From the NCBI GenBank assembly GCA_030068145.1, contig JAPJBO010000393.1, forward strand, positions 17,501-81,500: a DNA stretch of 64,000 nt, read 5' to 3'. Position numbers and translations under genes: made by a program. Source of the stretch: Diplonema papillatum (lineage: Eukaryota > Euglenozoa > Diplonemea > Diplonemida > Diplonemidae). The first letter of the stretch is position 1. The number at the start of each line of letters is the position of its first letter. The notes below the pieces were generated by a model. The model saw nothing but the letters and a program-made list of their open reading frames with translations. It did no database searches and was not told the origin of the DNA. This document shows positions 9,972 through 54,940 of the stretch, one piece after another.

Positions 9972-12900
9972 ATGGCGACCCCCATGCACATCCAAGCGGG
10001 GGGCCGGCTGGGCCGCCGGAGGAACGGCGGAAACAACAACAACAAGGGGAGGCGCGGCAAGCAGGCGGCGACGGGCGGCGCGACGCCGACGCTGCCGGAG
10101 ATCGGGCTCGGCAGGCAGACAGCGCACGCGGGCGGGGGAGGTGCGGGGGACGACGGCGTCCCGGGCACGCCCGGGCACCCTTCGGCGGGCAAGCCCGGGA
10201 CGTTGGCCGCGCTGCTGCGCGAGCAGCAGCTCCAGCTGACCGCTCGGAACTTCCCGGCGGCGGCGGGGAAGGACGGCGGCGGCTACGGGCGCGCGTTCCT
10301 TTGCCTCGTCAACAGGCTGAGGCAACCGGGCGACCGGCCAACCCGCCGCAGGTCCGACAGCACGGGAGCCGGAGCTCACCGCGGCGGGTCGACGGACGCC
10401 CTCGCCCTCAGCGTCGTCGGCAGCGGTTGCAGCGACTCATCCCTTACCCCCGTCGCCGACGTTGCGCCGCCGCCGCCAAACCCGACCAAACTCCCGTCCC
10501 TCGACGGCCCCAAGCCCCGGCGCACCCCCTCCCTCCCTTCCCCCGAGCCGTCCCAAGCCGCCAAGCCGGCCGCGGCGGCAACCCCGACGGCAGCGGGGGG
10601 AGCGAAAAAATCATCAGCGAGACCGGCGCCGACGGCAACCGCCGCCACCACCACCCCTCGAGACGCCGGGAAAAAACGGCCCCGCCAGCTGCTGGCGGAT
10701 GCCGGGCCGAGCGAAACCGACCCGCCCACCGTGTACGTGAGGTACCACGCGGACCACCCCGCGTCGCAGGCGCCCTCCAAGCTGCAGGGTGGCGGCGGGG
10801 GAGGGGGCGGCGTTTGGCAGCGGGGCGACGGGACGGCGGAGGAAGACGCGGGAACGGGCGCCGCCGGGCAGCGGAAATCGTCGCGAAGCGGCGCGCAAGC
10901 GGGGGAGGGGGCCGACCCGGGCGAGAGGGCCAGATCGGCGACTGCGAAGCGCCGCGCCACGAGCGACAAATCCGGCGACAAAACGTGCCGCAAAGCCAGC
11001 GACGCGGCCTGCGATAAAGCTTGCCGCAAAGCGAGCGAAAAAGCGGGCGACAAAACTTGCCGCAAAGCCAGCGACGCTGCTTGCGACAAAGCTTGCCGCA
11101 AAGAGAGCGAAACAGCGGGCGACAAAACTTGCCGCAAAGCCAGCGACGCGGCTTGCGATAAAGCTTGCCGCAAAGAGAGCGAAACAGCGGGCGACAAAAC
11201 TTGCCGCAAAGCTAGCGACGCGGCTTGCGATAAAGCTTGCCGCAAAGCGAGCGAAAAAGCGGGCGACAAAGCGTCGAAGAGCCCCGCGTATCCTTCGCCT
11301 GCCAGAGCAGGCAAGGGCCCGCACCTGGCCCCGCCGCCGAAGTCGAAGTTCATGACCGCGGTCGGGTTCGGCAGCGGGAACACGTCCGTCGCGCGCACGC
11401 TCGCGACGAAGCAGAAGATGCACGGGCTGCTCCGCGTGTCCCCGCGCAACCAGGCGAAGCATGCCTGCGTGGCGGCCGGCGCCGCGGCGCTGATGCGCGC
11501 CGTCGTGGATACCGCGCCGCTGGTGGTCGAGCTGAAGTACCTGGTGAAGACCGCGGCGGGATCCGCGGAATCGTCGATCTCTGGCGGGATGGCGCTGGCC
11601 CTGGGAGTGGACCGGCAGCGGGTGCTGGTGAAGGCGATCTCGATGCTCGACGCCGCACTTTCCGCGGATGCCGCGCGGGCGCTGGACACCGCGCTGTCCA
11701 TAGCAGAGGGCACCAACGCAGCGGCGGACTTGCAGAACTTGCTGGAGAACTTCGTGTCGGGGGTCTCGTTTCACGCGACTCGCGCGAAGCTGCTCGACTT
11801 CTACAAAAACCTCCGCCGGCTCTGGCTCGACAAACCGGGCGACATCCTAACCGAGCTATACGCGAACCTAAGAACCCCGGAGGACGAATCGCCGATCAAA
11901 AAGTACCGCCTCTTCGACTACATCACCGCGCGCATGGAAGCCAAAGCCGCCGCCGCGCCGCCGTCCGCCGACCAGGCCGCCCCGCCGGCTCCCCTCCAGC
12001 TGCTCGTCCTCTTCCTGTACACGCTCGACGGGCCGGACATCGACCGCCTGATGCTGTTCTCCGACGCCCCGCCCCTCGGTTACTACAAAACGGATCCGAC
12101 CGTCTGGAAGACGTACACCGACGCGTACACCGACTCTGGTGTTCGCAACCCGGACATCTACTACGAGATCGGAATCGCGCTGCGGGCGTTCGCCGAGAAC
12201 CCGGACCTGAGCGGCCGGGCCGCGGGGAAGGTGGGGAAGTGGATCAAGATGATCGGGCTGCTGATGGGGGTGCGGCTGAAGCGGGATCGGGCTGGCCCCG
12301 GCTTGTACTACAGGGGAATGTGCGGGGACGCCGTGCACGAGACGGCGGCGGGGCTGCAGGTCGGTGAGTGGGCGGGGTGGGCCGCGCCGAACAGCTGCAC
12401 CCCCCTGCGCTCGGCGTGCGACAACTTCCTGAAGACCGACGCGTCGGTGCTCTGGGAAGTCCGCAACAGCGGCGAGTTCATCGATATCGCGAAGTGGTCG
12501 AAGTACCCGGCCGAGGAGGAGGCCCTGTTCCCGCCGCTGACCATGCTCAAGGTCACGGCGGTCGACAAAAACGTGCCCCTGCGCGACGGGATCACCGGAA
12601 TCCGCGTCCGGTGCACGTCGGCCGGGCTCTTCGGCGCGCACGACCCGTGGCTGGGCAGCCCGGGCGACTACTGCGGGCCGTGGACCCGCCTCTGCCTCGA
12701 AGACGAGGAAGCCGCGCTCGTCCGTCTCCGGCACGTCATGGACTGCGCGAAGGCCGGGTACTCCACGGTCACGGTGCAGGTCTTCCCCGAAAACTCCACA
12801 AGCGGGCAGCTGCCGGGGCAGCAACCGAGCGACGCGCCGGTCGATTTCGTCAGGCTGTCGGGCCCAACCCCGGAGAACTCTGTCGGGTTGGCCGAGGGTG

Positions 12901-14543
12901 ACGGTCCTCCACGGAGAGCCAGCGTCGCGTTCGACGACAGTGTTTTCGACGGCGGAGCCGCGGGGGGTGCGCAGAAGGCGTGGCCTGCGTGGGTTGTAGG
13001 CGAGGTGCACTCGAGTCTGGACGTGAGCTCCGACGCGCTATCGGTGCTCCGTTCGAGGTTAGAGGGGCAGGGTGGCTCGCACGCCGTGATTCTCGGGGCG
13101 CACGGCATCGACGACGCGACGCCGTCGTTCGAGTGGTACGTTGCGGTCGGCGGGCCGCTGAAGGGCATCGACCTGGGGGTCGCGCGGAGCGCGCCGCTGC
13201 ACCCCGAAGCCGGCGGGTTCGACCCGCCGGCCTGCGCCCGCCTCCGGAAAAAAATTGCGCAGGCCCTCGCCTCCGCGAAGGGAGGGCAGCCCGCCGGCGT
13301 CTTCGGGTTCGCCGCGGGAGACCAGCTCCCGGGGAAAATGAGCGGGAACGCCGACGTGTTCCACCTGGTGTATCGCCGCGCCGAGCAGGCTACCCCTTCC
13401 GACTCCGGACCCCCCTGCGCCACGCTGTCTGTCACGGTGAACGACGACGTTCAGTCGTCGTTCACCGTGCCGTTGGACGGCGGCGGTCCTGGAGGAGCCG
13501 CCTTCTACCCGTTCTGCGGGCTGAAGCGGGTGGAGAGCTCCGCCCGCCTGCTGACCGCGGCGCAGGCCGCCGACCTGGCGCTGCGGCGCGTCGTGGTTGC
13601 GGAGGCGCGGGCCCGTGAGACCGCCGCGTCCGCCGAGGGGGCCGGGCGCGCGGCCGCGTGGTTCACCGCCGCCGGCATGCGCGAGGAGGCCGCCCGCGTG
13701 GTGGTGTGCAAGCGCGAGGTGGCAGACCTGCTCGAGATCAAGCTAGCAGCCACCCGCGACCGGCAGCAGCGCACGGCGCGCGACCTGCTGAACGTGTCGT
13801 CCTGGGAATGGGCCGGCCGCGAAGAAGTGCACCGAGGCGCCCTCGCGGCGCACGAACACGCGACACGCTGCGAGATGACGGCCGTTTGGTGCCGGCAGGT
13901 GCAAGCAGTCGCCGAAGCCTTGAGCTACCACTGGCCGCTTTCGGCACCCGAAGACCAGAGCCAAGCCTGCGTGGGGGGGTACCATTTGGGCGAAGTGCTC
14001 TGCGGGGGCTGGGCGGTGTCCTTCGCGCTGTGGGCGCGGTACGACTCCCTCGCGCAGACCCACTTTCTCCTCGAGCTGAACGACGCCGCCGACAACAAAA
14101 TAACGGTGAGAACCTGCATCGACGGCTACTGCAGCAAGACGACAACCGGGTGCTCCGTCGACATCAAGCAGCAGCGTGGAAAGTGCCCGCCGTTCCAGTC
14201 GTTCAATTTCTTCGAGGAAAACCAGTGGCAGCACGTCGCCGCCGTGTTCCACAAGAAAACGGTCTCCTTGTACCGCAACGGGGAGCTCCGAGAGATGTAC
14301 GAGCGACCGACCGACGTGTGCCCTGCGCGGCTCGCGCGCAAAGCGTGTGTGGCGGGTGGAACCGCCGCCGGGCTCAAGGACGTGCGCATCTACAACAGGC
14401 CGCTGCCCAAAGGCGACGTCAAGTATCTGTTCGACCACACTGCGCCCACCTCGCCACCCCGTCCGAAACTCTGCCTGCCGTCTACGTCTCGCCTTTCTGC
14501 GAGCATCAGTCAGCGCGCCGAAGAGAATGCAGCTTCAGGTTAA
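9972..14543 (+). CDS. Large protein with Lys/Cys repeats, ADP-ribosyltransferase domain and C-terminal LamG-like domain
   Basis: Single open frame of 1523 aa, strongly GC-rich; the start ATG has the same context as the upstream echo. Residues 1-330 are low-complexity (Gly, Arg, Pro, Ala). Residues ~331-433 are a 24-residue repeat (KTCRKASDAACDKACRKAS type). Residues ~440-760 are helical with no family recognised. Residues ~770-870 match arginine-specific mono-ADP-ribosyltransferases: GLYYRGM (Arg781), SCTPLRSA as the S-T-S-like strand, and YPAEEEALFPP with the E-x-E pair at 848/850, all three R-S-E elements. This family transfers ADP-ribose from NAD+ to a protein side chain. Residues ~1346-1490 look like a LamG/concanavalin-like fold (NQWQHVAAVFHKKTVSLYRNGE, LKDVRIYNRPL). 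No signal peptide or membrane segment is evident, so location is unknown. Substrate is unknown. Confidence 0.85.
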   Translation: MATPMHIQAGGRLGRRRNGGNNNNKGRRGKQAATGGATPTLPEIGLGRQTAHAGGGGAGDDGVPGTPGHPSAGKPGTLAALLREQQLQLTARNFPAAAGKDGGGYGRAFLCLVNRLRQPGDRPTRRRSDSTGAGAHRGGSTDALALSVVGSGCSDSSLTPVADVAPPPPNPTKLPSLDGPKPRRTPSLPSPEPSQAAKPAAAATPTAAGGAKKSSARPAPTATAATTTPRDAGKKRPRQLLADAGPSETDPPTVYVRYHADHPASQAPSKLQGGGGGGGGVWQRGDGTAEEDAGTGAAGQRKSSRSGAQAGEGADPGERARSATAKRRATSDKSGDKTCRKASDAACDKACRKASEKAGDKTCRKASDAACDKACRKESETAGDKTCRKASDAACDKACRKESETAGDKTCRKASDAACDKACRKASEKAGDKASKSPAYPSPARAGKGPHLAPPPKSKFMTAVGFGSGNTSVARTLATKQKMHGLLRVSPRNQAKHACVAAGAAALMRAVVDTAPLVVELKYLVKTAAGSAESSISGGMALALGVDRQRVLVKAISMLDAALSADAARALDTALSIAEGTNAAADLQNLLENFVSGVSFHATRAKLLDFYKNLRRLWLDKPGDILTELYANLRTPEDESPIKKYRLFDYITARMEAKAAAAPPSADQAAPPAPLQLLVLFLYTLDGPDIDRLMLFSDAPPLGYYKTDPTVWKTYTDAYTDSGVRNPDIYYEIGIALRAFAENPDLSGRAAGKVGKWIKMIGLLMGVRLKRDRAGPGLYYRGMCGDAVHETAAGLQVGEWAGWAAPNSCTPLRSACDNFLKTDASVLWEVRNSGEFIDIAKWSKYPAEEEALFPPLTMLKVTAVDKNVPLRDGITGIRVRCTSAGLFGAHDPWLGSPGDYCGPWTRLCLEDEEAALVRLRHVMDCAKAGYSTVTVQVFPENSTSGQLPGQQPSDAPVDFVRLSGPTPENSVGLAEGDGPPRRASVAFDDSVFDGGAAGGAQKAWPAWVVGEVHSSLDVSSDALSVLRSRLEGQGGSHAVILGAHGIDDATPSFEWYVAVGGPLKGIDLGVARSAPLHPEAGGFDPPACARLRKKIAQALASAKGGQPAGVFGFAAGDQLPGKMSGNADVFHLVYRRAEQATPSDSGPPCATLSVTVNDDVQSSFTVPLDGGGPGGAAFYPFCGLKRVESSARLLTAAQAADLALRRVVVAEARARETAASAEGAGRAAAWFTAAGMREEAARVVVCKREVADLLEIKLAATRDRQQRTARDLLNVSSWEWAGREEVHRGALAAHEHATRCEMTAVWCRQVQAVAEALSYHWPLSAPEDQSQACVGGYHLGEVLCGGWAVSFALWARYDSLAQTHFLLELNDAADNKITVRTCIDGYCSKTTTGCSVDIKQQRGKCPPFQSFNFFEENQWQHVAAVFHKKTVSLYRNGELREMYERPTDVCPARLARKACVAGGTAAGLKDVRIYNRPLPKGDVKYLFDHTAPTSPPRPKLCLPSTSRLSASISQRAEENAASG

Positions 14544-14596
14544 GCACGATGTGTCTAGTCGGACGCTTGCACGACAAGGCTGTGTCAGCGCGTGAC

Positions 14597-15470
14597 AGCC
14601 GTGTTTCAGAAGAAAACGTACCGCAACGGAGAGTTCTCCGTGAGAAGTTCGAGCGACCGACCGACGTGCCCTGCGCGGCTCGCGCAAAGCGTGCGTGTGG
14701 GCGGGTGGAACCGCCGCCGGCCTCAAGGATGTGCGCATCTACAACAGGCCGCTGCCCAAAGGCGACGCCAAGTATCTGTTCGACCACACTGCGCCCACCT
14801 CGCCGCCCCGTCCGAAACTCTGCCTGCCGCCTACGTCTCGCCTTGCCGCGAGCATCAAGCAGCGCGCCGAAGAGAATGCAGCTTCAGGTTAAGGACGATG
14901 TGTCCAGTCTGACACTTGCACGACAAGGCTGTGTCAGCACGTGGTTGCCGTGTTTCACAAGAAACCAGTCTCCTTAACGGGGTACTCCGGATGATGTGCA
15001 AGCGACCGGGCAATGTGTGTCCTGCGCGGCTCGTGCAAAGCTCGTGTCGCCGGCCCCAAGGACGTGCGCATCTACAACAGGCCGCCGCTGAAAGGCGACG
15101 TCAAGCACCTGTTCTGCGCCCACCTCGCCGCCCCATCCGAGACTCAGCTTGCCGTCTACGTCTCGCCTTGCCGCGACCATCAAGCAGCGCGCTGAAGAGA
15201 CGGCAGGTTAAGCACGAGTCGTCAGTCCGACAATTGCATGACAAGGCTGTGTCGGCAGATGCTGTTCACGCGACCAGGCAACGTGTGTCCTGCAAGGCTC
15301 GCGCGAAAGGCTTTCGTGGTTGGTGGCACCGCCGCCGACCTCAAGGACGTGCACATCTACTAAAACCGCCGCCCAAAGGCGACGTGAGTATCTGTTCGAC
15401 CACCCTGCGCTCACCCCGTCGTCCCGTCCGAAGCGCTACGTCTCGCCTACGTATCGCCTCAGCATCATAC
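14597..15470 (+). pseudogene. Three tandem 3'-end echoes of the ART-LamG gene
   Basis: The gene's last ~307 coding bases plus ~53 bases of 3' flank (14237-14596) are repeated three times: about 14597-14942, 14943-15261 and 15262-15470. Markers are GCCGTGTTTCA, CGTGCGCATCTACAACAGGC, GACGTCAAGTATCTGTTC and ACGACAAGGCTGTGTCAGC. Unit length falls with distance from the gene (360, 346, 319, about 209 bp) and later copies carry frameshifts and deletions. They are non-functional terminal fragments, not further genes. Confidence 0.9.
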
Positions 15471-16798: not shown

Positions 16799-17920
16799 AT
16801 GATAACGGCAGGCCCGCGGCCGCCCAAGGGGGTCGCCAGCGGCGTGGTGAGCGCGATAGTCGTCTGGTACGCGTGCTCGGTCGTGGGCAATGTGACCAGC
16901 AAGATGATCCTGCAGCGGTTCGACCACCCGGTGACGCTGATGATGGGGCCCATGCTCATCGGCGCGTGCTCCGTGCCGTTGATCGCCGCCCTCTTCCCCA
17001 AGAAGTGGGCGTCTTGGATACTCACGGGGAACTCCGTCAGCGGGGAATCTATGTTCCGCTACTCGGCGTCCTCTCTCTTCCACACAGCTTCCGAGCGCAA
17101 GATGTTGTGTTTCATCCTCGGGTTCTTTAATTTGGCCGCCGGATTGACACACCGGATGGCGTTGTCTTCCGTCCAGGTGTCCTTCGCGCATACGGTGAAG
17201 GCTATCCAGCCTTTGTATGCGTGTTTCTTCAGCTTCCTGACGTTCGGACGGTGTCCGACTGCTGCGTCGATCTTCTGTTTGACAGTTGTCATGTTTGGGG
17301 TGGTGATTAGTGTGTTCAACGAGGGTTCCGGGTCGTTCGCCGGCGTCGTCGCTTTGCAGGTGAGTGTGGCTTGCCTGAGCCTGAGTTCCGTCGTGCAGAA
17401 GCTGGTGCTCGCCGGGCTCGACAAGGCGGAGGTCTACTGCTTCATCACCGCCTCCGCGGCCATCATGAACTGCTTCCTGTGGCTCCTCGTCGACGCATAC
17501 ACACTTCTTTCGGCGGACTCTGCCTTCACGGGGTCGTTTCTATCCCTCGCTGCCTTGATCGCCGTCAATTCCGTCGCGTTGGCCCTGCAGCACTTCACCT
17601 CGCTCACCGCGCTGCAGCACTTGTCGCCGACGTCGCATTCAGTCGTCGCCTGCATGAAGCGCATCGTCATCATCACGATGTCGGACATCCTCCTTCACCA
17701 TCGGATGAACCCTGTCACTGCTGTGGGAGCCTCGCTCGCCGTCCTCGGGGCCACGGCGTACGAACGGACCGCCAAACAGCAGCGGAAGGCGATCGACCTC
17801 GAGCACAAGGCCGAGAAGGACGGCATGTCGCCGACCCACCACCGCCACGAGCCCGCGCCGCACGCTTTCTTTCAGTACCTGATGTCGGCTGGCTCGCGGA
17901 GGGAAGCGCTGGTCGTGTAG
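16799..17920 (+). CDS. Triose-phosphate/nucleotide-sugar transporter family protein (DMT superfamily)
   Basis: Intronless, 373 aa, about the usual size for the TPT/NST branch of the drug/metabolite transporters. These are ten-helix antiporters of Golgi, ER or plastid membranes that exchange phosphorylated sugars or nucleotide sugars. Hydrophobic helices cover residues ~14-315. Family-like features are NVTSKMIL in helix 1, SFAHTVKAIQPLYACFFSFL (cf. the SFTHVVKA...P signature) at ~residues 123-142, SSVVQKLVL, and the end segment ISVFNEGSGS. The tail from ~320 is charged (KQQRKAIDLEHK). Substrate and membrane cannot be read from sequence. The ATG at 16799 gives a full first helix; there is no obvious cleavable targeting peptide. 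Downstream lie several partial copies of the 3' end. Confidence 0.88.
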   Translation: MITAGPRPPKGVASGVVSAIVVWYACSVVGNVTSKMILQRFDHPVTLMMGPMLIGACSVPLIAALFPKKWASWILTGNSVSGESMFRYSASSLFHTASERKMLCFILGFFNLAAGLTHRMALSSVQVSFAHTVKAIQPLYACFFSFLTFGRCPTAASIFCLTVVMFGVVISVFNEGSGSFAGVVALQVSVACLSLSSVVQKLVLAGLDKAEVYCFITASAAIMNCFLWLLVDAYTLLSADSAFTGSFLSLAALIAVNSVALALQHFTSLTALQHLSPTSHSVVACMKRIVIITMSDILLHHRMNPVTAVGASLAVLGATAYERTAKQQRKAIDLEHKAEKDGMSPTHHRHEPAPHAFFQYLMSAGSRREALVV

Positions 17921-17945: not shown

Positions 17946-18500
17946 CCGCCGCACGCTTTCTTTCAGTACGGCTGGCTCGCGGAGGGAAGCGCTTGTCGTG
18001 TGACACGTGAGGTTACTGGCACACTGGCCGCCGCACGCTTTCTTTCAGTACGGCTGGCTCGCGGAGGGAAGCACTTGTCGTGCAAACAAGCCAGGTTTCC
18101 GGCATACTGAAGCTACGTGCAATGCCACTTGTTGACAACGTCGCATTCAATCGTTGCCTGCATGAAGCGAATCGTCATCACGATGTCGGACATCTTCCTC
18201 CACCATCGGATGAACCCTGTCACCCACCTGATGTCGTCTGGCTCGCGGGGAAGCGCTTGCCGTGTGTAACAAGTGCGAAAGGACAGCAGCGGAAGGCGAT
18301 CGACTTCGAGCACGAGGCCGCGAAGAACGGCATGTCGACCCACCTCCGCCACGAGCCCGCGCCGGACGCTTTCTTTCAGCACCCGATGTCGTCTGGCGGT
18401 TCACGGAGGGAAGCGCTTGTCGTGTAGACAAGCCAGGTTCCCGGCACACTGAAGGCTCGTGCAATGCCACTTGTTGACGACGTTGGACCCAGTCGTCGTT
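17946..18500 (+). pseudogene. 3'-end echoes of the transporter gene
   Basis: Two short copies (about 17946-18022 and 18030-18108; marker CCGCACGCTTTCTTTCAGTA and GCGGAGGGAAGC) are followed by a longer one at about 18121-18468. The longer copy repeats the region from CGTCGCATTCAATCGTTGCC to the stop and 3' flank with internal deletions. A remnant follows at 18470-18500. Another isolated remnant lies at 19247-19335 (CGCCACGAGCCTGCGCCGCA). The 3' flank motif CCAGGTTCCCGGCACACTGA is carried along. All are fragments. Confidence 0.88.
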
Positions 18501-18647
18501 GATGAAGCGGAATGCCATCATCACGGTTCCCGCACCATCGACCGCCTCTGTCATCCGTCCGTCCAGCCGCAAAACGAGGGCGTGTGGATCCTCTCGCTCG
18601 TCTCTCTCCCTCTCTTGGAATGTCAGCGCGGTGCGGACGAGAACATA

Positions 18648-24951: not shown

Positions 24952-26646
24952 CGAACTTTCACGTCAAAACTGCAACGCCGGGCTCGTGTTGCATAAATAA
25001 AGGGAGTCATTTTCACTAAGTTGAACTCTGCAAGATTGTTGCAGGACGCTCTGTAATCAACTGTTTTGACCCTGCTTTGGATTAACTCGCTGTAGCCTTG
25101 TACACAGGCGACACCACCCGCGTACTTGCTGCCTCCTCTGCTTCCTCTATGTCTATCACAGTCCGAAAAGAAGATGCAACCTAAGATCCTCCGGGGCGTC
25201 CATCGGCCGCCAGACTAGAAAGAAACCCCAGGGAAAAAAGCTTCGGCGCCCTTTCTTTTGTGAGAGATGGCCCCACACACTGCATGGCGAAGGTTAAGAA
25301 CAAAAAGACGCAGGGCAGCGTGCGTTTTCGGTGGTTTGATCACGCAGGGCGGACGCCGAAACGAGAGAGTGCACGGCGGATAAGTGCGGCCGGAGGTTTA
25401 CTGCTGGAGTCTGTGTTGGATGCAGCGGTTCACTTCGCCGCTGGACGTGACTGGAGGCAGACCAAGCACGCTTTGCGGGACTCGAAGAGCTCGGTTGCGC
25501 CAGGAAGAGAGCTAAATTTGAGAAATTCAAATTTACCCAAACCTCGAGACTCGGAAGACATTCAGAAGAGTCGCGCAGGAAACAGGTTTTGTGAGACTCG
25601 ATACGCCACACTCAGGGTATACAGTAGCCGCGCCTATTACAGTATCACTGCGGGAATGCTGCTGCGCAGTCGTCAAGCCACCCAAGAACCAGGTGGTTGG
25701 GGGGGGGTGTCGTTGGACGGGAAGAAAACCCACCCTCCCTTTCCCCTGTGACCTTGTCCAGACAAGCTTATTTCCGCAAGTCCCCTGGACGGGTATTTCC
25801 ATCTTGCCCCGAGCCGATGAGAGGCACACACGGCCGTGGACCCAAGGACCCGATTGCCGTCGTACCTAGGAGCACCGCGTGAGGAGCGGCGCCGAGGGGC
25901 CCATTCGTTGTGTTGACCCGGCCCTTGAGCTCGTACCGATCCATTCCCGGACGCCCTGCTGCTCGGAACCTCCTTCCGCTGTGTCCCTCCTGCTGTGTTG
26001 GGTTTGTCAATTGCAGGAGTTCGCTCAGCGGCGGGTGTTTCGGTAGCGGGCGGGCTGGGCGGGAGGGTCCGTTCTCTGGGAGCAAGGACGGCTGCGTGTT
26101 AACATTCCACGGAAAGAATCGTTCGTGATTCAAGAAGAGGGATGCCGATTAGAATGAGGTATGAATGCCATACCACATGCTCGAAAGACATGGAGGAAAT
26201 GCAAAATGAATCGGTCATGTGCCAATGAAAATGCAAAAGTCAAAACCGTTCCTCTCCCATGGACTCGTTCCCCCGGTTGAGCCCTCTCGTGCGGGCGTCT
26301 CCCCCGGTGGGCCGAGTGCCCCGGGTTCCACCCCTCTTGGGGGAACTCCGCTGCCGCCTTGCGTAGGGGCGACGTAGTTGTGGCCATGGCCTCCCTCGGC
26401 GCTTCGGCTCCACGGCTCGGCGGTGTGGCTCAGGCATTTGTAGGCAGCAGCGCACGTTCAGTATGCGAAGAATGTGTGGCAGATCTTTCTGCCTCGATCT
26501 GCACGTTCAGAAGGTGCTCAGCCACAGAAGTCCTCGCTTTTTGGACGAACCACATCCGTAGGCCAAGGCACGCTCCAAAACAGTTGACAGAGCAAAGGGA
26601 GAAGGGGGAGGGCGGGGGCTTGCACGTCCACTACCACCGGGCAGCC
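24952..26646. other. Spacer before the mS47-like gene, no gene recognised
   Basis: A 163-codon + frame at 25260-25751 has no recognisable family, includes low-complexity stretches and has no support beyond length, so I do not call it a gene. GC content rises at about 26640, where the next gene begins. Confidence 0.45.
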
Positions 26647-32430
<5,784 letters not shown>

Positions 32431-36431: not shown

Positions 36432-37985
36432 ATGGCTGCGATTGCGCACCCCAACCTCACGACGGGCAATGGCTGGCTGGCCCACGAGGAGAAGAAGGCG
36501 GAGCAGCTCCGCGCGATGCTGGCGGCGCTGAACCGGATGCTGATGTACGAGAAGGCGTTAGCGGCCGAGGAGGAGTTCCAGTCGAACGTGCTGCGGATGC
36601 CGGAGGTCGGCAGCCCGTGGGGCGGCGGCAGCGGTCTGGTCCAAGCGGCGCTGGGCGGGTATTCGGCGGTGGTGAAGCAGCAGGCGCGGCGCCGGCAGCG
36701 CGCGAAGGAAAAAGCCAAGCGGTACCTGAAAGAGATGCGCACAGCCTTCAACGACAAGCTCATCCGAACGTCGTCCTCGTTACACGGCACCCTCGATCGG
36801 TATACAAGCGGCAGGGCGACAGACGCCCTGCGGGAGAACCGAAGGGACTTCACCGCCCACCTGCACCGCGCAACCTCTCAACACCTCTGGCGCCTGCAGC
36901 ACCGCCTCGTCAAGTCCTTCGGGGCCGTCTTCGAGAAGGCCGCCGACGACGCGGCGCCGCCGCGATCCTTCGGGGGTTTCCAGCAATTTTTCGCGGCCCG
37001 CTGGCCGTTTCCTTCGGGCGGCGGCGAAGGGGGCGGAGGTGGCGAGGACGGCGGCAAGCCGGCGGCGCGGCTCTCGTTCTTCGGGGCCCCCCGGAAGCCT
37101 GCAGACTTCGAGGCGATCGGCGCGCTGGCGTTCCCGGAGGCGCGGCGGGCGCTCGACACGCCCTCCGCGGGCGGGGATTGGAACGAGATCCAGCCGACCG
37201 CCTTCCCGTCTGCATACGCGCCGTACCTGCACATCTACACCCGAAAAACCAACCTCGAGCACCTCCCGGCGACGCGGCTGGAAGCGTTTTTCCCGGACAC
37301 GCCGCTCGAAACCATGCGGGAAATCCTGCTCGACCCCGCTGAGCGCCTGCGCTGGGACCGGAATCTGACCGCATTCTTCGAGCCGGCCGCGCCGGCGGCC
37401 GACGACGAGGCGTCACCGCAGCCCGCGGGGGGCGAGGGGAAGGTGCTGTTCCACGCAGTAGAGAACAAGACCATGAACCTCTTCGGGTTCAAAGGCCGGT
37501 CGTTCCTGTACCGCAGGCTCGAAGAGCCCTGCGGCGACCGGTGCGTCGACGTGCGGTTTCGCTCCGTGACCGACGAAGCGATCGAAGACCAGGTGTCACA
37601 AGACAGCCGAACCCCCGCGAAAACCACGCGAGGCTTCATCTACTACCAGCACTACCGCCTGCAGGAAGAGTCGTACGCGGACTTCACTGCTCGTTCGGCC
37701 GGCCGAGAGGCGGAGCACGGAGAAGAAGAAGAAGACAGCCCCAGGGGCCTCTCGCTGACCATCACCGCGGCCACCGACACAGGGGGCACGACGCCGCCGC
37801 GGTCGGTCGTCAACTTCATGTGCAAGATGCTGGGCGGGAATCCGTACATCTGGATGCGGCAGCACCTGGACCGCAGGGCCGGCGTGCCCGTGGTCGGGTC
37901 CCTGCTGACGGGTGACAGCGACACCTTAGGCTACCCTGCTTCGTGGGCCACTCCGGTTGAGTATCACTTCGCCATGCTGGAGTGA
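36432..37985 (+). CDS. START-domain lipid-binding family protein
   Basis: Intronless, 517 aa, GC-rich. Residues ~15-130 are helical and charged (EEKKAEQLRAMLAALNRMLM), possibly coiled coil. Residues ~225-485 match the START/SRPBCC fold: MREILLDPAERLRWDRNL (cf. the 'L.D...R..WD' start-of-domain signature), then FRSVTDE and LSLTITAATDTGGTTPPR followed by SVVNFMCKML, the typical late START strand and C-terminal helix (T-D-x-G-G...P...VNFM). START domains bind a lipid in an inner cavity, for transfer between membranes or sensing; the ligand cannot be inferred. No signal peptide or membrane helix is seen. The protein continues about 30 residues past the domain. Five to six degenerate copies of its 3' end follow. 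Confidence 0.82.
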   Translation: MAAIAHPNLTTGNGWLAHEEKKAEQLRAMLAALNRMLMYEKALAAEEEFQSNVLRMPEVGSPWGGGSGLVQAALGGYSAVVKQQARRRQRAKEKAKRYLKEMRTAFNDKLIRTSSSLHGTLDRYTSGRATDALRENRRDFTAHLHRATSQHLWRLQHRLVKSFGAVFEKAADDAAPPRSFGGFQQFFAARWPFPSGGGEGGGGGEDGGKPAARLSFFGAPRKPADFEAIGALAFPEARRALDTPSAGGDWNEIQPTAFPSAYAPYLHIYTRKTNLEHLPATRLEAFFPDTPLETMREILLDPAERLRWDRNLTAFFEPAAPAADDEASPQPAGGEGKVLFHAVENKTMNLFGFKGRSFLYRRLEEPCGDRCVDVRFRSVTDEAIEDQVSQDSRTPAKTTRGFIYYQHYRLQEESYADFTARSAGREAEHGEEEEDSPRGLSLTITAATDTGGTTPPRSVVNFMCKMLGGNPYIWMRQHLDRRAGVPVVGSLLTGDSDTLGYPASWATPVEYHFAMLE

Positions 37986-38033: not shown

Positions 38034-39345
38034 CTGATACCGGGGGCACAACGGCGTTGAAACTTGTCGTCAACTTCATGTTGAAGCTTGCTTTGGTGAG
38101 GGCATTATTGATGTTGGCAGCATCGACATCAGTTTTATCACGGTGAAACACTTCTGCAGCTGCCTTCGGGCCACTCCGGTTGAGTACCACTTCGCCATGC
38201 TGGAGTGACCAACCGAACAAACCCCGGAAGAGAAGTATGCAGACACCCCACAGCTACTGATACCGGGGGCACAACGGCGTTGAAACTTGTCGCCAACTTC
38301 ATGTTGAAGCGTGCTTGGGTGAGGGCGGCATTATTGATGTTGGCAGCATCGACATCAGTTTTATCACGGTGAAACACTTCTGCAGCTGCCTTCGGTTGAG
38401 TACCATTTCGCCATGCTGGAGTGACCAACCGAACAAACCCCGGAAGAGAAGTAAGCAGACACCCCACAGCTACTGATACCGGGGGCACAACGGCGTTGAA
38501 ACTTGTCGTCAACTTCATGTGCAAGATGGTAGGCGGCAATCCGTACACCTGGACCGCAGGGCCGGCGTGCCCGTGGTCGGGTCGCTGCTGACGGGTGACC
38601 AGCGACACCTTGGGCTGCCCTGCTTCGTGGGCCACTCCGGTTGAGTACCACTTCGCCATGTTGGTGTGACCAGCCGAACAAACCCCGGGAGAGAGACACC
38701 CCATAGCTACTGATACCGGAGGCACAACGGCGCTGGAACTTGCCGTCAACTTCATGCGCAAGATGCTAGGCGGCAGCACCTGGACCGCAGGGCCGGCGTG
38801 CCCGTGGTCGGGTCGCTGCTGACGGGTGACCAGCGACACCTTGGGCTGCCCTGCTTCGTGGGCCACTCCGGTTGAGTACCACTTCGCCATGTTGGTGTGA
38901 CCAGCCGAACAAACCCCGGGAGAGAGACACCCCATAGCTACTGATACTGGAGGCTCAACGGCGCTGGAACTTGCCGTCAACTTCATGCGCAAGATGCTAG
39001 GCGGCAGCACCTGGACCGCAGGGCCGGCGTGCCCGTGGTCGCGTGCCTGCTGACGGGTGCCAGCGACACCTTGCGGCTTCGGGGACCACTCCGGTTGAGT
39101 ACCACTTCGCCATGTGTTGGAGTGACCAACCGAACAAACCCTGGGGGAGAAGTAAGAACGGGACGTCCCATAGGCCTGACTAACACCGAGCTGCTGATAC
39201 AAGATGCACGACGGCGCCGAAACTTTTCGTGTGCAAGATGATATCCGTGCCTCTAGATGCGGCAGCGCCTCAACCGCAGGCCGGCGTGCCCGTGGGCTGC
39301 CCTGCTTCGTGGGTCACTCCTGTTGAGCACCACTCCGCCATGTTG
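38034..39345 (+). pseudogene. Five to six 3'-end echoes of the START-domain gene
   Basis: Units of about 215-250 bp begin at about 38034, 38251, 38471, 38706, 38940 and (partial) 39191. Each begins near CTACTGATACCGGGGGCACA, which corresponds to the gene's ACCGACACAGGGGGCACGAC. Units run through the gene's last coding stretch (TTCATGTGCAAGATG, GGCCACTCCGGTTGAGTACC) and its 3' flank (CCGAACAAACCCCGGAAGAG). The first two have their middle replaced by a shared foreign 90 bp (GGCAGCATCGACATCAGTTT). Later ones keep the gene-like middle (GGACCGCAGGGCCGGCGTGC) but carry deletions. Confidence 0.9.
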
Positions 39346-40589
39346 GAATGGCCCACCGAACCAGAAAAACTCTGGAACCCCGAGACTACAGAAGGGCCGC
39401 GTGCGCGGGCTTGGAGCAAGCTGAACAAGCAGCAAGGCCGCGGCGCCACGACGAAAAGGTGGCAAGCACACAAAGATCATTGGCAGTCGGTTCGTGGCGC
39501 AAAGAACACGGGCAAAGAGAACACAATATCCGCCAACATACCATTCCTCCCACCACCGCATCCTTCCGGGTGCCTAGCCATCGGTCTAGTCCTAACGACA
39601 TACTATGCCATCGAACGAACGAATCCAAAAGAGAATGCACATCCGCCGGGAAGCACAAAAACCAGCCTGCAGTTTCCGCCGAAAGTCTTTCTTCGCCAGG
39701 AAAACCCGACCCGTGTGTTGTGATTTCTTTTGTCCCCGCCCCCTTGGCGGTGGTCCTCCCGCGGTTGACAAGGGCTCGAACCTTCTTGTGAACCCTTTCT
39801 TCAGCAATGGCCACCTCGCCCGGTGCACAACAAACCGCGCTTTCTCTTTGTCGTGTAAGACGCTAGTCTTAGAAGGTTAGTATTAGCCGACTAATACCAA
39901 TACTGCGGCAAAGGACGTCTCTCTCGCGCGCACACATCCGCTCACGCTCTATCTCCGCGCGCTTGCGCGACGAAGGAAATGAGACAAACACGCGGAGGTC
40001 CTTGCCAGTCGGATTTTCCGCACCAGCACCGACTGGGGACAGTCGCAGCGCGTGCTTGTCGTGTGGCCTCAATTCAATCGGACACTCCAAAAAACTAGAC
40101 CATTGCATCGCCGCTAATTTTTCTGCGCTGAGTGACATGCTTACGTTTAGCACGCAGATCTCCACCAGCTGAGGTCGGCGAGAGTGTCGTTCGAGCACCC
40201 TGTTTTTTCCTGAATCAATTCGTGTCTTTGAAGTGTGATCCCCGAACCTCAAAAAAAAGAAAATGCGAACCTGTCCAAGCGAACTTCGGACGCTCAGACA
40301 GAACAGAGAAGACGCTGAATGAGGGGTTTTGGGCAGAACGATTCCGGCAACGATGCTGGACAACCTATGTGTGTAAAGAGGGACCTGCCTTAGCTTTCAC
40401 TTCGCAACGGAGCTTCAACTTCGTGCATGGTGGACCGGTTCGGCTTTCGCGCTTTTCCCCCCTCTTTTATTTGCACACGCAAAGCACCCGCGTTTCTCGC
40501 AGCTGTTTGAGCTGCACTCGGTCCACAGTTGCCTCAGCAATCCCTACCCCCCGCAATACAAAGTTGTTCCTCTACCACGTAGCGCCCTA
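39346..40589. other. Intergenic, no gene recognised
   Basis: Several open frames on both strands overlap one another and have no recognisable family. No repeats shared with the rest of the window were noticed. Confidence 0.45.
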
Positions 40590-46884: not shown

Positions 46885-47100
46885 TGCAGATTATCGCCAC
46901 AGATTCTTTGCATTCTAACCCAAACTAATCCAAGCTATCGCAGTCTATCAAGAATCTGCATTCTAAGCCAAACTAGTCCAAGCTATCAGCAGTCTGTCAG
47001 CAATCTGTCAGCAGTCTGTCAGCAGTTTGTCAGCAGTCTGTCAGCAGTTTGTCAGCAGTCTGCATTCTAATCCAAACCAATCCCTACCAAACCATCACCC
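46885..47100. repeat. Short repeats around TGCAGATTATCGCCACAGAT and GTCAGCAGTCT
   Basis: GATTCTTTGCATTCTAAYCC-AAACT occurs repeatedly, and CAGCAGTCTGTCAGCAGTTT is reiterated at about 46987-47055. This is the diverged relative of the 48-bp minisatellite that follows. Confidence 0.7.
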
Positions 47101-47289
47101 TATCACCGTGGACCGGCTCAAGGGGGGATGCTGCAAAGACTCCGGCTGTCGGGCATCCGCCAGCTGGGCACGACAGCCGGATCGGCTGCCCCGCAAGGAG
47201 CCGCGCAAAGAGGCTCCGCCGGCGGCGAGGCCGGAGCGCTGCCGCTGGTGCAGTCCGAGTCCCGGAGCCCGTCATGGTACGATCGAAGA
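47101..47289 (+). pseudogene. 5'-end echo 1 of the AspRS gene
   Basis: GTGGACCGGCTCAAGGGGGG then ATG and about 50 codons similar to AspRS (LRLSGIRQLGTTAGSAAPQG, LPLVQSESRS) with an internal deletion. It ends at about 47275, where it joins GAGGTAGTCACCTGGTGACT. It is the shortest and most diverged of three upstream echoes. Confidence 0.85.
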
Positions 47290-47332
47290 GGTAGTCACCT
47301 GGTGACTAATGCAGGCCATCGCTACAGATATT

Positions 47333-48025
47333 CTGCATTCCAACCTCAACGAATTCAAGCTATCACAGTCTATCAGGGGTCTACATTCTAACCTCAACGA
47401 ATTCAAGCTATCACAGTCTATCAGGGGTCTACATTCTAACCTCAACGAATTCAAGCTATCACAGTCTATCAGGGGTCTACATTCTAACCTCAACGAATTC
47501 AAGCTATCACAGTCTATCAGGGGTCTACATTCTAACCTCAACGAATTCAAGCTATCACAGTCTATCAGGGGTCTACATTCTAACCTCAACGAATTCAAGC
47601 TATCACAGTCTATCAGGGGTCTACATTCTAACCTCAACGAATTCAAGCTATCACAGTCTATCAGGGGTCTACATTCTAACCTCAACGAATTCAAGCTATC
47701 ACAGTCTATCAGGGGTCTACATTCTAACCTCAACGAATTCAAGCTATCACAGTCTATCAGGGGTCTACATTCTAACCTCAACGAATTCAAGCTATCACAG
47801 TCTATCAGGGGTCTACATTCTAACCTCAACGAATTCAAGCTATCACAGTCTATCAGGGGTCTACATTCTAACCTCAACGAATTCAAGCTATCACAGTCTA
47901 TCAGGGGTCTACATTCTAACCTCAACGAATTCAAGCTATCACAGTCTATCAGGGGTCTACATTCTAACCTCAACGAATTCAAGCTATCACAGTCTATCAG
48001 GGGTCTACATTCTAACCTCAAACTA
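47333..48025. repeat. 48-bp minisatellite, about 14 copies
   Basis: Unit CATTCTAACCTCAACGAATT-CAAGCTATCACAGTCTATCAGGGGTCTA. Copies are virtually identical. The 48-bp period is a multiple of three and the unit lacks stops in at least one frame per strand, so ~248-codon frames exist on both strands (HSNLNEFKLSQSIRGL on +). Flanking sequence has the same composition with stops, so I treat it as non-coding. Confidence 0.93.
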
Positions 48026-48097
48026 ATCCAAGTCCAACAGCAACCCGCATTCTAATCCAAACTTATTCAAAATAGTCCAAGCTATCACAGTCTAACA

Positions 48098-48515
48098 GCA
48101 GGGGGTGGACGGGCTCAAGGGGGGATGCTGCGAAGACTCCGGCTGTCGGGCGTCCGCCAGCTGGGCACGACGACCGGATCGGCAGCCTCGCAAGGAGGCT
48201 CCGCCGCCGCCTTGCGCGGCTCCGCCGGCAGCGAGGCCCTGCCGCGCGGGTTCGGAGTGCTGCTGCTGGTGCAGTCCGAGTCGCGGAGCACGCTCCCGTG
48301 GACCCCGGTCGCCCTGCTCGCCGCGGGGGACAGCCCCCGGACGCCTGTGCGCGTGCGGGCCCGCGTCGCGAGAAAACGCGGGTCCAGGGGAAGAAGCTCG
48401 TCTTCTGCGGGCTTGCACTCCGTGCAGGCAGTCGCCGCGAGGTCGGCGGACGCAGATGCGGGCGCTGACAACCCCGCCGCGGGTGAATCCAGCGTAGCCA
48501 TCACGAGCCACATAG
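48098..48515 (+). pseudogene. 5'-end echo 2 of the AspRS gene
   Basis: Repeats the gene's 5' flank (AGCAGGGGGTGGACGGGCTC-AAGGGGGG), start codon at 48125 and about 125 codons. It diverges from the gene at ACGAGCCAC (about 48510), just where the OB-fold would continue. A frame of 135 codons is open, but it lacks the rest of the synthetase. Confidence 0.9.
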
Positions 48516-48731
48516 ACCATCGCTACAGATAATCTGCATTCTAAGCTCAAACTACCACAGTCTATTAGGGGTCTGCATTCTACGCCAAATTAATTCAAGT
48601 CTAACTGCAACCTGCATTCTAGTCCAAACTCATTCAAACTAATCCAAGCCATTACAGTCGTAAAAATTTGTTGCATTCGTGTGATTGTCAGGCCTTCGAC
48701 TACCCTGAACAACGCACTATCATCACAGTCT

Positions 48732-49155
48732 AACAGCAGGGGGTGGACGGGCTCAAGGGGGGATGCTGCGAAGACTCCGGCTGTCGGGTGTCCGCCAGCT
48801 GGGCACGACAGCCGGATCGGCAGCCCCGCAAGGAGGCTCCGCCGCCGCCTTGCGCGGCTCCGCCGGCAGCGAGGCCCTGCCGCGCGGGTTCGGAGTGCTG
48901 CCGCTGGTGCAGTCCAAGTCGCGGAGCACGTTCCCGTGGACCCCGGTCGCCCAGCTCGCCGCGAGGGACAGCCCCCGGACGCCTGCGCGCGTGCGGGCCC
49001 GCGTCGCGAGAAAACCCGGGTCCAGGGGAAGAAGCTCGTCTTCCTCGCTCTGCGGGACGGCTTGCACTCCGTGCAGGCAGTCGCCGCGAGGTCGGCGGAC
49101 GCAGATGCGGGCGCTGACAACCCCGCCGCGGGTGAACCCAGCGTAGCCATCCACG
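48732..49155 (+). pseudogene. 5'-end echo 3 of the AspRS gene
   Basis: Same content and same right boundary (GAGCCAC) as echo 2, start codon at 48763, 127 open codons. It is closest in sequence to the real gene. The DNA between echoes (TCTGCATTCTACGCCAAATT, CATTCAAACTAATCCAAGC) is repeated too, so the unit is flank plus 5' coding segment, about 555-640 bp. Confidence 0.9.
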
Positions 49156-49317
49156 AGCCACCTAGACCATCCTCAAACTACCACAGTCTATTTGGGGTCT
49201 GCATTCTACGCCAAATTAATTCAAGTCTAACTGCAACCTGCATTCTAATCCAAACTCATTCAAACTAATCCAAGCTATCACAGTCTAACAGCAGGGGGTG
49301 GACGGGCTCAAGGGGGG

Positions 49318-51048
49318 ATGCTGCGAAGACTCCGGCTGTCGGGCGTCCGCCAGCTGGGCACGACAGCCGGATCGGCAGCCCCGCAAGGAGGCTCCGTCGC
49401 CGCCTTGCGCGGCTCCGCCGGCGGCGAGGCCCTGCCGCGCGGGTTCGGAGTGCTGCCGCTGGTGCAGTCCGAGTCGCGGAGCACGTTCCCGTGGACCCCG
49501 GTCGCCCAGCTCGCCGCGGGGGACAACCCCCGGACGCCTGTGCGCGTGCGGGCCCGCGTCGCGAGAACCCGGGTCCAGGGGAAGAAGCTCGTCTTCCTCG
49601 CTCTGCGGGACGGCTTGCACTCCGTGCAGGCAGTCGTCGCGAAGTCGGCGGACGCAGATGCGGGCGCTGACAATTCCACCGCGGGTGAACCCAGCGCAGC
49701 CGTCACGAGCCACGCCCTCAAGTGGATCGCATCCATCCCGACCGAAAGCGTCGTCGACGTGACTGGCTTCGTCCAGCCGACACCGGCGCCCATTAAAAGC
49801 TGCACGCAAGAATCCATCGAGCTCAAAGTGACCGGCCTGGCGCTGGTGTCGTCAGCCGCAGCCGTGTTGCCCTTCCAACTGTCGGACGCGACCGACCCCG
49901 ACACCACAGGCGCAGCCGTCCAGCAGGCCACTCGGTTGGAACACCGGTGGCTCGACATGCGCACGAGGCCAAACCAGGCCGTGTGGCGGCTGCAGAGCCG
50001 GGTCTGCCAGCTCTTCAGGGAGTTCCTGTCAAGCCCGGGGGAGGACTTCACCGAAATCCACACCCCGAAGCTGATCCCCGCAGCGTCCGAGGGTTCAGGT
50101 GCGACCGTGTTCAAGGTTGAGTACCTGCACGGCAAGCAGGCGTTCCTCGCTCAGAGCCCCCAGCTCTACAAGCAGATGGCCCTGCAAGGCGACCTGACCC
50201 GTGTCTTCGAAATCGGCCCCGTCTTCCGCGCCGAGGACTCGAACACGCACCGCCACCTGTGCGAGTTCACGGGCCTCGACGTAGAGATGGAGGTCAAGGA
50301 GCACTACTACGAAGTGCTCGACGTCGCGGACGGGCTATTCAGCCACATCTTCGACAACCTGCCCGGGAAGTCCGCGGCCGCTGGCTGCGACTTGGTAGCG
50401 GAGGTTGCGGGTTCGATGCCGGGGTGGACGCCGTTCGTGCACAGAGTGCCGGAAGAGGTGGTGGAGAAACTCGGGCTTGGCGTGGACAGCGCGAGTGGGT
50501 ACGAGGAGTCTCGCGACGAATTCAACGCGAGAATCGGTTCGAGGGGCAGCGGGATGCTCCGCCTGCGCTACGCGGACGCGGTGGAGATCATCAACGCGAA
50601 CGGTTGCGCCGAGGAAGCGGCGGAGATGGGCCCGCTGGATGACATGTCCACGGAGAACGAGCGTACCCTGGGCCGGTTCGTGAAGGCACGCTACGGCGTC
50701 GACTTCTACGTCGTGGACCAGTTCCCGGCCGGCATCCGGCCGTTCTACACGATGCCGAGCCCGCGCGGCGACGGGTACTCGAACAGCTACGACATCTACA
50801 TGCGGGGCGAGGAGGTGTCCTCCGGAGCTCAACGAGTCCACTGCGCCGAGCTCCTGATGAAGCAGGCGGCCGACCGCGGGCTGAGTCTCGAGCAGCTGCA
50901 GCACTACATCAACTCCTTCACCCTGGGGGCGTGGCCGCACGGAGGCTTCGGCGTCGGGCTGGAACGCGTGCTGATGCTGTACCTGGGGCTGCCCAACGTC
51001 AGGGCCTGCTCCATGTTCCCGCGAGACCCGCGGCGCATCGCCCCGTGA
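49318..51048 (+). CDS. DARS: Aspartyl-tRNA synthetase, eukaryotic type
   Basis: 576 aa, intronless. Attaches aspartate to tRNA-Asp. Residues 1-~55 (MLRRLRLSGVRQLGTTAGSA...) are Arg/Ser/Ala-rich like a mitochondrial presequence, so an organellar or dual-targeted form is possible. Residues ~60-180 are the OB-fold anticodon-binding domain (RVRARVARTRVQGKKLVFLA, IPTESVVDVTGFV, IKSCTQESIELKV). The class II catalytic core follows: motif 1 around FTEIHTPKL, motif 2 RVFEIGPVFRAEDSNTHRHL (residues ~296-315), and motif 3 GGFGVGLERVLMLYLGLPNV near the C-terminus. The layout is that of the cytosolic/archaeal-type enzyme, not the bacterial one. Start chosen because all three upstream echoes preserve the same ATG context. 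Echoes flank both ends. Confidence 0.95.
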   Translation: MLRRLRLSGVRQLGTTAGSAAPQGGSVAALRGSAGGEALPRGFGVLPLVQSESRSTFPWTPVAQLAAGDNPRTPVRVRARVARTRVQGKKLVFLALRDGLHSVQAVVAKSADADAGADNSTAGEPSAAVTSHALKWIASIPTESVVDVTGFVQPTPAPIKSCTQESIELKVTGLALVSSAAAVLPFQLSDATDPDTTGAAVQQATRLEHRWLDMRTRPNQAVWRLQSRVCQLFREFLSSPGEDFTEIHTPKLIPAASEGSGATVFKVEYLHGKQAFLAQSPQLYKQMALQGDLTRVFEIGPVFRAEDSNTHRHLCEFTGLDVEMEVKEHYYEVLDVADGLFSHIFDNLPGKSAAAGCDLVAEVAGSMPGWTPFVHRVPEEVVEKLGLGVDSASGYEESRDEFNARIGSRGSGMLRLRYADAVEIINANGCAEEAAEMGPLDDMSTENERTLGRFVKARYGVDFYVVDQFPAGIRPFYTMPSPRGDGYSNSYDIYMRGEEVSSGAQRVHCAELLMKQAADRGLSLEQLQHYINSFTLGAWPHGGFGVGLERVLMLYLGLPNVRACSMFPRDPRRIAP

Positions 51049-51120
51049 GAGCTGCGTGCGCCAATGCGGGTTTCCGATCCCGCGCTGGAAAGGCTGTTAC
51101 GCAAGGAACGCCACCTCTGA

Positions 51121-51560
51121 GGCTTCGGTGTCGGGCTGCTGAAGCTGTACCTGGGGCTCCCCAACGTCAGGGCCTGCTCCATGTTCCCGCGAGACCGTAA
51201 CGCCCCGTGCGCTGGAAAGGCTGTTACGCAAGGACAACGCTACCTCGGAGGCTTCCTGCCGATGCTGTACCTGGGGCTCAATGGCAGGGCCTCCCGCAAG
51301 ACCCGCGGCGTATCGCCCGTGAGAGCTGCGTGCGCTAATCCGGTTTGACGATCCCGTGCTGGAAAGGCTGTTACGCAAGCAACGCCACCTCGGAGGCTTC
51401 GGTGTCGGGCTGCTGATGCTGTACCTGGGGCTGCCCAACGTCAGGGCCTGCTCCATGTTCCCGCGAGACCCGCCCCGTGAGAGCTGCGTGCCCCAATCCG
51501 GGTCGACGATCCTGCGCTGGAAAGGCTGTATAGTAAGAACGCCACCACCCCTCCACCCTT
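51121..51560 (+). pseudogene. Three 3'-end echoes of the AspRS gene
   Basis: Copies start at about 51121, 51250 and 51397 with GGCTTCGGTGTCGGGCTG, equivalent to motif 3 in the gene (50944). They include TGTACCTGGGGCTGCCCAAC, GCCTGCTCCATGTTCCCGCG, the stop and flank GAGAGCTGCGTGCGCCAAT, and GCTGGAAAGGCTGTTACGCA. All carry deletions. Confidence 0.92.
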
Positions 51561-54240: not shown

Positions 54241-54940
54241 TGGGAGTTCCTGGCTCGGGAAGGGTCAGGTTTCAGCTTATCCCGGTGGGTTACACATTGC
54301 GGACCTCTCGAGTAGTTGCCTCTACGGCCTAAAACCCCGGAGGCGTGGCCTCGAGCATGGTGTGGTGGAAAAGGAGCTCGCAAGTTGGTTGAAGAAGAAC
54401 GTTGTTTCACCAGCCGCGCTTCCGCGCGTGCAGGCTGAGCGTAGAAAGGGGAGAGACTGTTGCAGTCTGCATTATCCCGCAGCCTTCTCTGTTGGCAACG
54501 GACCATTGAGCTAGGACAATCCCATGGTACGGCGTGAAAAGCGCGATCGGGCCCACGGCAGCGCAAGCCAGCCAGCTAGCGGTCGTGCACACAGCCTGTC
54601 TGCTCGCGGTCGCCGGCCCGGCAAGCCGCTATCTGCCTCACAGGTTCCCTGCAGGAGCTGACAACAGGCTTGCCACAAACAGCATGGTTCGCACAGGGTT
54701 TAAGCTCAGAATTCAGTTTCGTAGGGAGGAAACGTCGGTGAGAAATTGCAGTGTGCGACTGATTTTCGACAATCCAACGCCGGACCGGATTCTCATGCCC
54801 CCATCCAACCACGATTCCCCCCCCTAAATTCAGTAAACTAAGATTTCACCCCCGTTTTCGACGATGCCACCTAAACCCTTCGTAGGATTTGCAAAACATC
54901 ACAAATCACTTCTGTCCCGTTAGCTGCGCACTCGCGCAGT

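What the first reader, a model, noticed from the sequence alone, without database searches (positions are those of the whole stretch)
9972..54940. Genes flanked by tandem decaying copies of their own ends ('gene-end echoes')
Five of six complete genes (ART-LamG, transporter, mS47-like, START, AspRS) are followed by 2-6 head-to-tail partial copies of their 3' coding end plus 3' flank. Two of them also have 5'-end copies upstream. The phenomenon is gene-specific and repeats independently across the window, so it looks like a genome-wide process. Candidate causes are microhomology-driven tandem duplication anchored at gene ends, or copying linked to transcription ends. The copies could also act as alternative promoters, splice acceptors or 3' ends.
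Basis: partly seen in the sequence, partly recalled or inferred. Interest (0 to 1): 0.9.

Follow-up and report, generated by a model that had tools for sequence, protein, structure and literature searches.

The report
Tandem scraps flanking Diplonema genes
In the marine protist Diplonema papillatum many genes are followed or preceded by worn tandem copies of their own ends; this was already reported for this genome, and it is best read as the visible trace of a genome-wide habit of short tandem duplication that selection tolerates only where one intact gene copy survives.

Summary
In the window, 4 of 6 gene 3' ends and 2 of 5 tested 5' ends have local same-strand copies. A fifth 3' end (mS47-like) has an array that is almost all 3' flank. 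The GH6 gene has no echo but carries three in-frame domain copies. The genome is the diplonemid Diplonema (Paradiplonema) papillatum: a named 599-aa D. papillatum protein matches it at 100%. Its genome paper already describes such "repeat-bounded gene structures" at 5' and 3' ends, with PacBio support (PMC10161547, section 7). So the phenomenon is known; frequency and logic are not given in the parts I read.

My tests favour random local tandem duplication plus purifying selection. 3'-end copies lie only downstream, 5'-end copies only upstream, none inverted (12 cases in 27 ORFs). Gene ends outside the window are echoed at 9 of 60, noncoding control points at 9-16%, so anchoring at gene ends is not shown. 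Echoes decay like noncoding DNA. One feature could mean more: the gene-adjacent copy is the most gene-like in 5 of 5 gene-end arrays of the window, a possible gene-anchored conveyor.

The parts
8973..9651 (+). 5' echo of the ART-LamG gene: gapped copy of 9849-10361, about 97% identical
9972..14543 (+).
10960..11272 (+). 36/72-bp in-frame tandem repeats inside the ART-LamG ORF
14582..15459 (+). three 3' echoes of the ART-LamG gene (91, 83 and 79% to the gene copy)
16799..17920 (+). triose-phosphate-transporter-family gene (PF03151, E=4.3e-38)
17947..18525 (+). 3' echoes of the transporter gene (two short adjacent copies, one longer copy 18126-18451, one fragment)
26281..32430 (+). mS47-like gene in several exons (weak ECH hits below cut-off; last exon matches PDB mS47 7ane_z, E=2.3e-8)
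32403..33118 (+). array after the mS47-like gene; only about 27 nt of CDS, otherwise 3' flank
36414..37985 (+).
38168..39361 (+). about five 3' echoes of the START-labelled gene, with a dispersed repeat within (38301-38397)
47060..49276 (+). 5' echoes of AspRS (47060-47272, 48084-48659, 48722-49276) with a 48-bp array 47332-48021 between
49336..51048 (+). aspartyl-tRNA synthetase gene (PF00152, E=2.3e-69)
51119..51546 (+). three 3' echoes of AspRS; one also found with the other D. papillatum AspRS as protein query
54875..59113 (+). GH6 gene with three in-frame tandem catalytic domains (98-99% DNA identity) and no end echoes

Best explanation
The echoes are worn remnants of ordinary short-range tandem duplications (units of about 0.06-1.2 kb). 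These arise in many parts of this genome and are then filtered by selection. A tandem duplication that straddles a gene's stop codon leaves the first copy intact and puts the spare 3' end downstream. One that straddles the start puts the spare 5' end upstream and leaves the last copy intact. One wholly inside a gene survives only if in frame (GH6 domains, 72-bp ART repeats). One outside genes is neutral. Spare ends then decay by substitution and indels, and further unequal exchange or slippage adds copies. SHOWN HERE: orientation rule, occurrence at several other loci, similar density in noncoding DNA, mostly neutral decay, in-frame intragenic duplications. INFERRED: the molecular step (slippage, unequal sister exchange or microhomology-mediated template switching) and the absence of function.
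For: Order rule: of 27 ORFs scoring >=35 in the window and 19 sampled loci, 8 had 3' copies downstream (7 gene ends and one internal exon of the mS47-like gene) and 4 had 5' copies upstream; 0 had 3' copies upstream, 0 had 5' copies downstream, 0 were inverted.
Background: in 20 sampled loci (200 kb; every 15th contig C10-C295, bases 20001-30000, picked without looking) local direct repeats cover 23,010 bp in 150 pairs, inverted ones 1,872 bp in 13 pairs, palindromes 518 bp in 8. Noncoding points are spanned by a local duplication at 11.6% (10.7% without the L023 histone array), 9.0% with gene-touching repeats removed, 15.7% at >=2 kb from gene calls.
Gene ends outside the window: 3' 6 of 33, 5' 3 of 27, together 9 of 60 (15%, CI 7-27%). 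Same-locus permutation for the 30 sampled-locus ends: 5 observed, 3.9 expected, P=0.35.
Interior coding points are spanned at only 12 of 421 (L023 left out).
Decay: mismatches at codon positions 1/2/3 are 110/2204, 129/2199, 179/2208, and 23 of 68 indels are multiples of 3, the chance value.
Intragenic pairs: 25 of 25 end offsets and 23 of 25 start offsets are multiples of 3, from 7 arrays; intergenic 78 of 185, gene-end-crossing 25 of 52, pairs not independent.
Against: The 3' rate alone (6 of 33) leans above the strictest background (P=0.07), and the window is rich (6 of 11, P=0.08 against its own noncoding points; far above the 9-16% of the sampled loci, P<=0.003). Copies are polar: the gene-adjacent copy is the most gene-like in 5 of 5 window gene-end arrays, and identity to the gene copy falls steadily outward in 8 of 10 gene-anchored arrays against 4 of 15 intergenic ones, read from one end only. 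Slower evolution of the gene copy and detection limits explain part of this, perhaps not all. Some echoes are gapped rather than head to tail (L013b, L024, L040, ART 5'). L035 mismatches fall only at third positions (0/0/5), and all 5 indels are multiples of 3. The in-frame test is partly circular, since a frame-breaking duplication would end the ORF. L018 has a repeat pair on either side of a low-scoring ORF (score 26, left out of the order test), an arrangement the order rule does not cover.
Confidence: 0.78

Rival explanations
1. Gene-end-anchored conveyor: something at gene ends (transcript cleavage or trans-splice sites, R-loops, replication-transcription conflicts) repeatedly breaks DNA there, so new copies are born beside the gene and older ones are pushed outward.
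For: Polarity of copies in the window gene-end arrays; 6 of 33 3' ends against 9% background (P=0.07); the published SufC array also has its most distal copy the most diverged (47% against 71-96%).
Against: Same-locus null gives P=0.35; 5' ends at 3 of 27 are near background; many arrays lie away from genes; kinase 3' ends 0 of 8 (the reading frame of one, L046, is uncertain). The mS47-like flank array and the L030 5'-flank array show no outward fall. Polarity is also expected from a slowly evolving gene copy and from array growth between neighbours.
Confidence: 0.12
2. Functional echoes: the copies are kept as alternative 5' ends, trans-splice acceptors or long 3' UTR regulatory arrays.
For: Diplonema 3' UTRs are long (median about 800 bp), so echoes will often lie in transcribed sequence; L035 echoes look constrained.
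Against: Pooled echoes decay with random-length indels and little codon-position bias; the published array is absent from mature mRNA.
Confidence: 0.05
3. Retrocopies: 5'-truncated cDNA copies inserted beside the parent gene.
For: 3' ends are the commoner class (6 of 33 against 3 of 27).
Against: 5' echoes exist, the copies are same-strand and beside the parent, and several arrays carry 3' flank in register with the next unit.
Confidence: 0.02
4. Assembly artefact.
For: Repeats confuse assembly; no reads could be examined here.
Against: Copies differ by about 2-24% and carry distinct indels; PacBio reads supported the published example.
Confidence: 0.02

Closest known systems
Repeat-bounded gene structures of Diplonema papillatum (Valach et al. 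2023, PMC10161547, section 7 with Fig. 2 legend)
   Same: Same genome; part of the 5' region with CDS repeated in tandem upstream, or a 3' end repeated into an intron or the 3' UTR; degenerate copies.
   Different: The paper reports dozens of cases from manual validation and one drawn example; sections 5 and 7, read here, give no frequency, background comparison or mechanism. Other sections were seen only as search passages; supplements were not read.
Partial gene duplicates from small-scale duplication (review PMC3449122, search passages read)
   Same: Duplications that cover part of a gene are a recognised product of small-scale duplication.
   Different: Here units are very short, repeated several times, and mostly dead scraps beside an intact parent.
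Minisatellite or satellite arrays grown by slippage or unequal exchange (recalled)
   Same: Head-to-tail units, variable copy number, worn copies.
   Different: Unit includes a gene end, so one copy is under selection.

Membership tests
Repeat-bounded gene structures of D. papillatum | lies in the D. papillatum nuclear genome | tested here: met
   599-aa D. papillatum AspRS 100% identical over 599 of 599 residues at C57; assembly size near the published one
Repeat-bounded gene structures of D. papillatum | part of the 5' region including CDS repeated in tandem upstream | tested here: met
   AspRS and ART 5' echoes; L020, L022, L038 outside the window
Repeat-bounded gene structures of D. papillatum | 3' end repeated after the gene | tested here: met
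   ART, TPT, START-labelled, AspRS; L013 twice, L024, L035, L038, L040
Repeat-bounded gene structures of D. papillatum | copies degenerate (71-96% in the published case) | tested here: met
   75.7-97.6% to the gene copy in five window arrays
Repeat-bounded gene structures of D. papillatum | array confirmed by long reads and absent from mature mRNA | not testable with these tools
   no reads or RNA data held
Random tandem duplication plus selection | same density at gene ends and in noncoding DNA | tested here: inconclusive
   9 of 60 ends against 9-16% background; not different, low power
Random tandem duplication plus selection | 3' copies downstream, 5' copies upstream, same strand | tested here: met
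   8 and 4 of 27 ORFs, 0 exceptions
Retrocopy | dispersed, 5'-truncated copies | tested here: not met
   copies lie beside the parent and include 5' ends
Retrocopy | poly(A) tail and loss of introns | not tested
   not scored
Dispersed transposable element | many copies across the genome | tested here: not met
   two arrays searched; the ART array has one 109-bp match elsewhere, the START array only a 90-odd-bp insert that is dispersed, in a capped list

The most novel reading that the evidence does not exclude
Gene ends in diplonemids act as recurrent duplication origins: each gene is an intact master that keeps shedding copies of its end into its flank, newest next to the gene, giving a readable time-ordered record beside thousands of genes.
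Probability: 0.1. Interest if true: 0.75.

Novelty: already known. Interest (0 to 1): 0.35.

Why it matters
It shows how a genome with abundant short tandem duplication can surround its genes with partial copies without harming them. It also warns annotators: repeats adjacent to genes give over-long models and spurious introns (noted in PMC10161547). If 15% of gene ends (9 of 60, CI 7-27%; a sample partly chosen by gene family) is representative of about 37,000 genes, thousands of ends are affected, far more than the dozens reported. Whether the copies are ordered in time beside genes is directly testable with the public assembly.

Tried and rejected
Retrocopy, dispersed-element and assembly-artefact readings were considered and rejected (see rivals). 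A strict outward gradient by raw BLAST identity was mixed; full alignment of units chosen by hand gave the clearer result.

Rows dropped before counts: L023 (histone-like array) from gene-end, direction, interior-point and permutation counts; ORFs scoring under 35 as genes; ends too near a locus edge; the window's own TPT gene (L029) from the outside-window counts. Near misses not counted: L035 5' (about 22 nt of CDS) and the L030 5'-flank array. Arrays with a single echo copy (ART 5', L013a, L040) are not in the polarity count. The ORF caller was trained on six window genes, so gene calls and start codons are approximate. Literature searches; of the 19 papers only PMC10161547 held 'repeat-bounded gene'. 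Of PMC10161547 I read sections 5 and 7 and search passages; of PMC12621601 and PMC3449122, search passages only.

Full report
WHAT WAS CHECKED. Self-comparison of the window confirms tandem same-strand copies beside the named genes. With a fixed criterion 4 of 6 3' ends and 2 of 5 tested 5' ends are spanned by a local duplication. The mS47-like gene fails narrowly because its array shares only about 27 nt of coding sequence. The GH6 gene has no echo but consists of three in-frame tandem domains. Gene labels: LamG, TPT, AspRS and GH6 are supported by Pfam. mS47 is supported by a match of the last exon to PDB mS47 chains and by weak ECH hits below cut-off.

WHERE IT COMES FROM. The genome has 271 Mb in 2910 contigs. 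A protein named Aspartate--tRNA ligase of Diplonema papillatum matches it over 599 of 599 residues at 100% on contig C57, so the window is D. papillatum; the published assembly has 280 Mb in 6181 contigs of 200 bp or more. [quoted passage not shown] It draws one array of 12-13 degenerate copies, with PacBio support and no presence in mature mRNA. The finding is therefore an independent rediscovery.

IS IT TIED TO GENE ENDS? I used 20 stretches of 10 kb (every 15th contig from C10 to C295, bases 20001-30000, so blind but not strictly random), 12 loci of the TPT family (one of them the window's own) and 8 kinase 3' ends (chosen from the 133 matches for a complete domain end and a short frame). 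Outside the window, 3' ends: sampled loci 3 of 14, TPT 3 of 11, kinases 0 of 8. 5' ends: sampled loci 2 of 16, TPT 1 of 11. Together 9 of 60. Background points in noncoding DNA: 11.6%, or 10.7% without L023, 9.0% when repeats touching genes are removed, and 15.7% at least 2 kb from a gene call. The same-locus null gives P=0.35 for the sampled loci and P=0.08 for the window. So no attachment to gene ends is shown; 3' ends lean above the strictest background (P=0.07), and the sample cannot exclude a 2-3 fold excess. The window lies in a duplication-rich stretch (24-31% of its noncoding points spanned).

WHY GENES LOOK FRAMED. A tandem duplication across a stop keeps the gene in the first copy; across a start, in the last. 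This predicts the order rule. Of 27 ORFs examined, 8 had 3' copies downstream (one of them an internal exon of the mS47-like gene, so 7 gene ends), 4 had 5' copies upstream, and none had reversed or inverted copies. A low-scoring ORF in L018 with a repeat pair on either side was below the score limit and not tested. Interiors of coding regions are spanned at 12 of 421 points, and duplications inside ORFs are in frame (25 of 25 end offsets, 23 of 25 start offsets, 7 arrays). That test is partly circular, since a frame-breaking duplication would close the ORF. Local direct repeats outweigh inverted ones 150 to 13 pairs, with 8 palindromes.

FATE OF THE COPIES. Over 42 aligned pieces, mismatches at codon positions 1, 2, 3 are 5.0, 5.9 and 8.1%, and 23 of 68 indels are multiples of three. 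The mild third-position excess fits a constrained parent and an unconstrained echo. L035 is an exception (0, 0, 5 mismatches; 5 of 5 indels in threes) and may be recent conversion or a coding extension.

WHAT REMAINS ODD. In 5 of 5 window gene-end arrays the copy next to the gene is the most like the gene. Over 10 gene-anchored arrays, identity to the gene copy falls steadily outward in 8 (exceptions AspRS 3' and L038), against 4 of 15 intergenic arrays read from their low-coordinate end (W22266, L012, L019, L027); the mS47-like flank array and the L030 5'-flank array do not fall. A slowly evolving gene copy, neighbour-to-neighbour growth and loss of detection at the far edge explain much of this. 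A gene-anchored conveyor is the bold alternative, at about 10%. Some echoes are gapped (L013b, L024, L040, ART 5'); over all direct pairs 101 of 150 are more than 60 bp apart, but that count includes non-neighbouring copies of one array. Later deletions, insertions (a dispersed repeat sits in the START array) or non-tandem copying may also act.

VERDICT. Real, present at several loci across the genome, already in print for this genome; best explained by random short tandem duplication filtered by selection. Added here: a frequency estimate, a background comparison, the order rule, decay and the polarity question.

Noticed in passing
L023:480-9728: Tandem array of about nine ORFs spaced roughly 0.9-1.6 kb; the one tested encodes a histone H2A-like protein.
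   Followed up: partly
window 54875-59113: GH6 gene with three nearly identical in-frame catalytic domains joined by Pro/Thr-rich linkers.
   Followed up: partly
window 38301-38397: A stretch inside the START echo array is a dispersed repeat; 39 other places are listed, with 40 of 92 candidates scored.
   Followed up: no
G000 C199:122112-123601 and C217:130236-130337: Short fragments matching the other D. papillatum AspRS (82% and 71% protein identity), the C199 fragment occurring twice 1.3 kb apart.
   Followed up: no
window 47332-48021: A 48-bp unit repeated about 14 times at 99% sits between AspRS 5' echoes and is far more uniform than its neighbours.
   Followed up: no
window 28660-28934 and 35803-36165: Very long pure or nearly pure (GT)n and (CA)n runs of 275 and 363 bp; the first lies within the mS47-like gene region.
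   Followed up: no
L035 (reverse complement 2530-3846): 3' echoes of a TPT-family gene whose few differences are all at third codon positions and whose indels are multiples of three, unlike the pooled echoes.
   Followed up: partly
L018:1734-1867 and 3177-3310: Direct repeat pair on either side of a low-scoring ORF (1721-3166), an arrangement not explained by the order rule.
   Followed up: no
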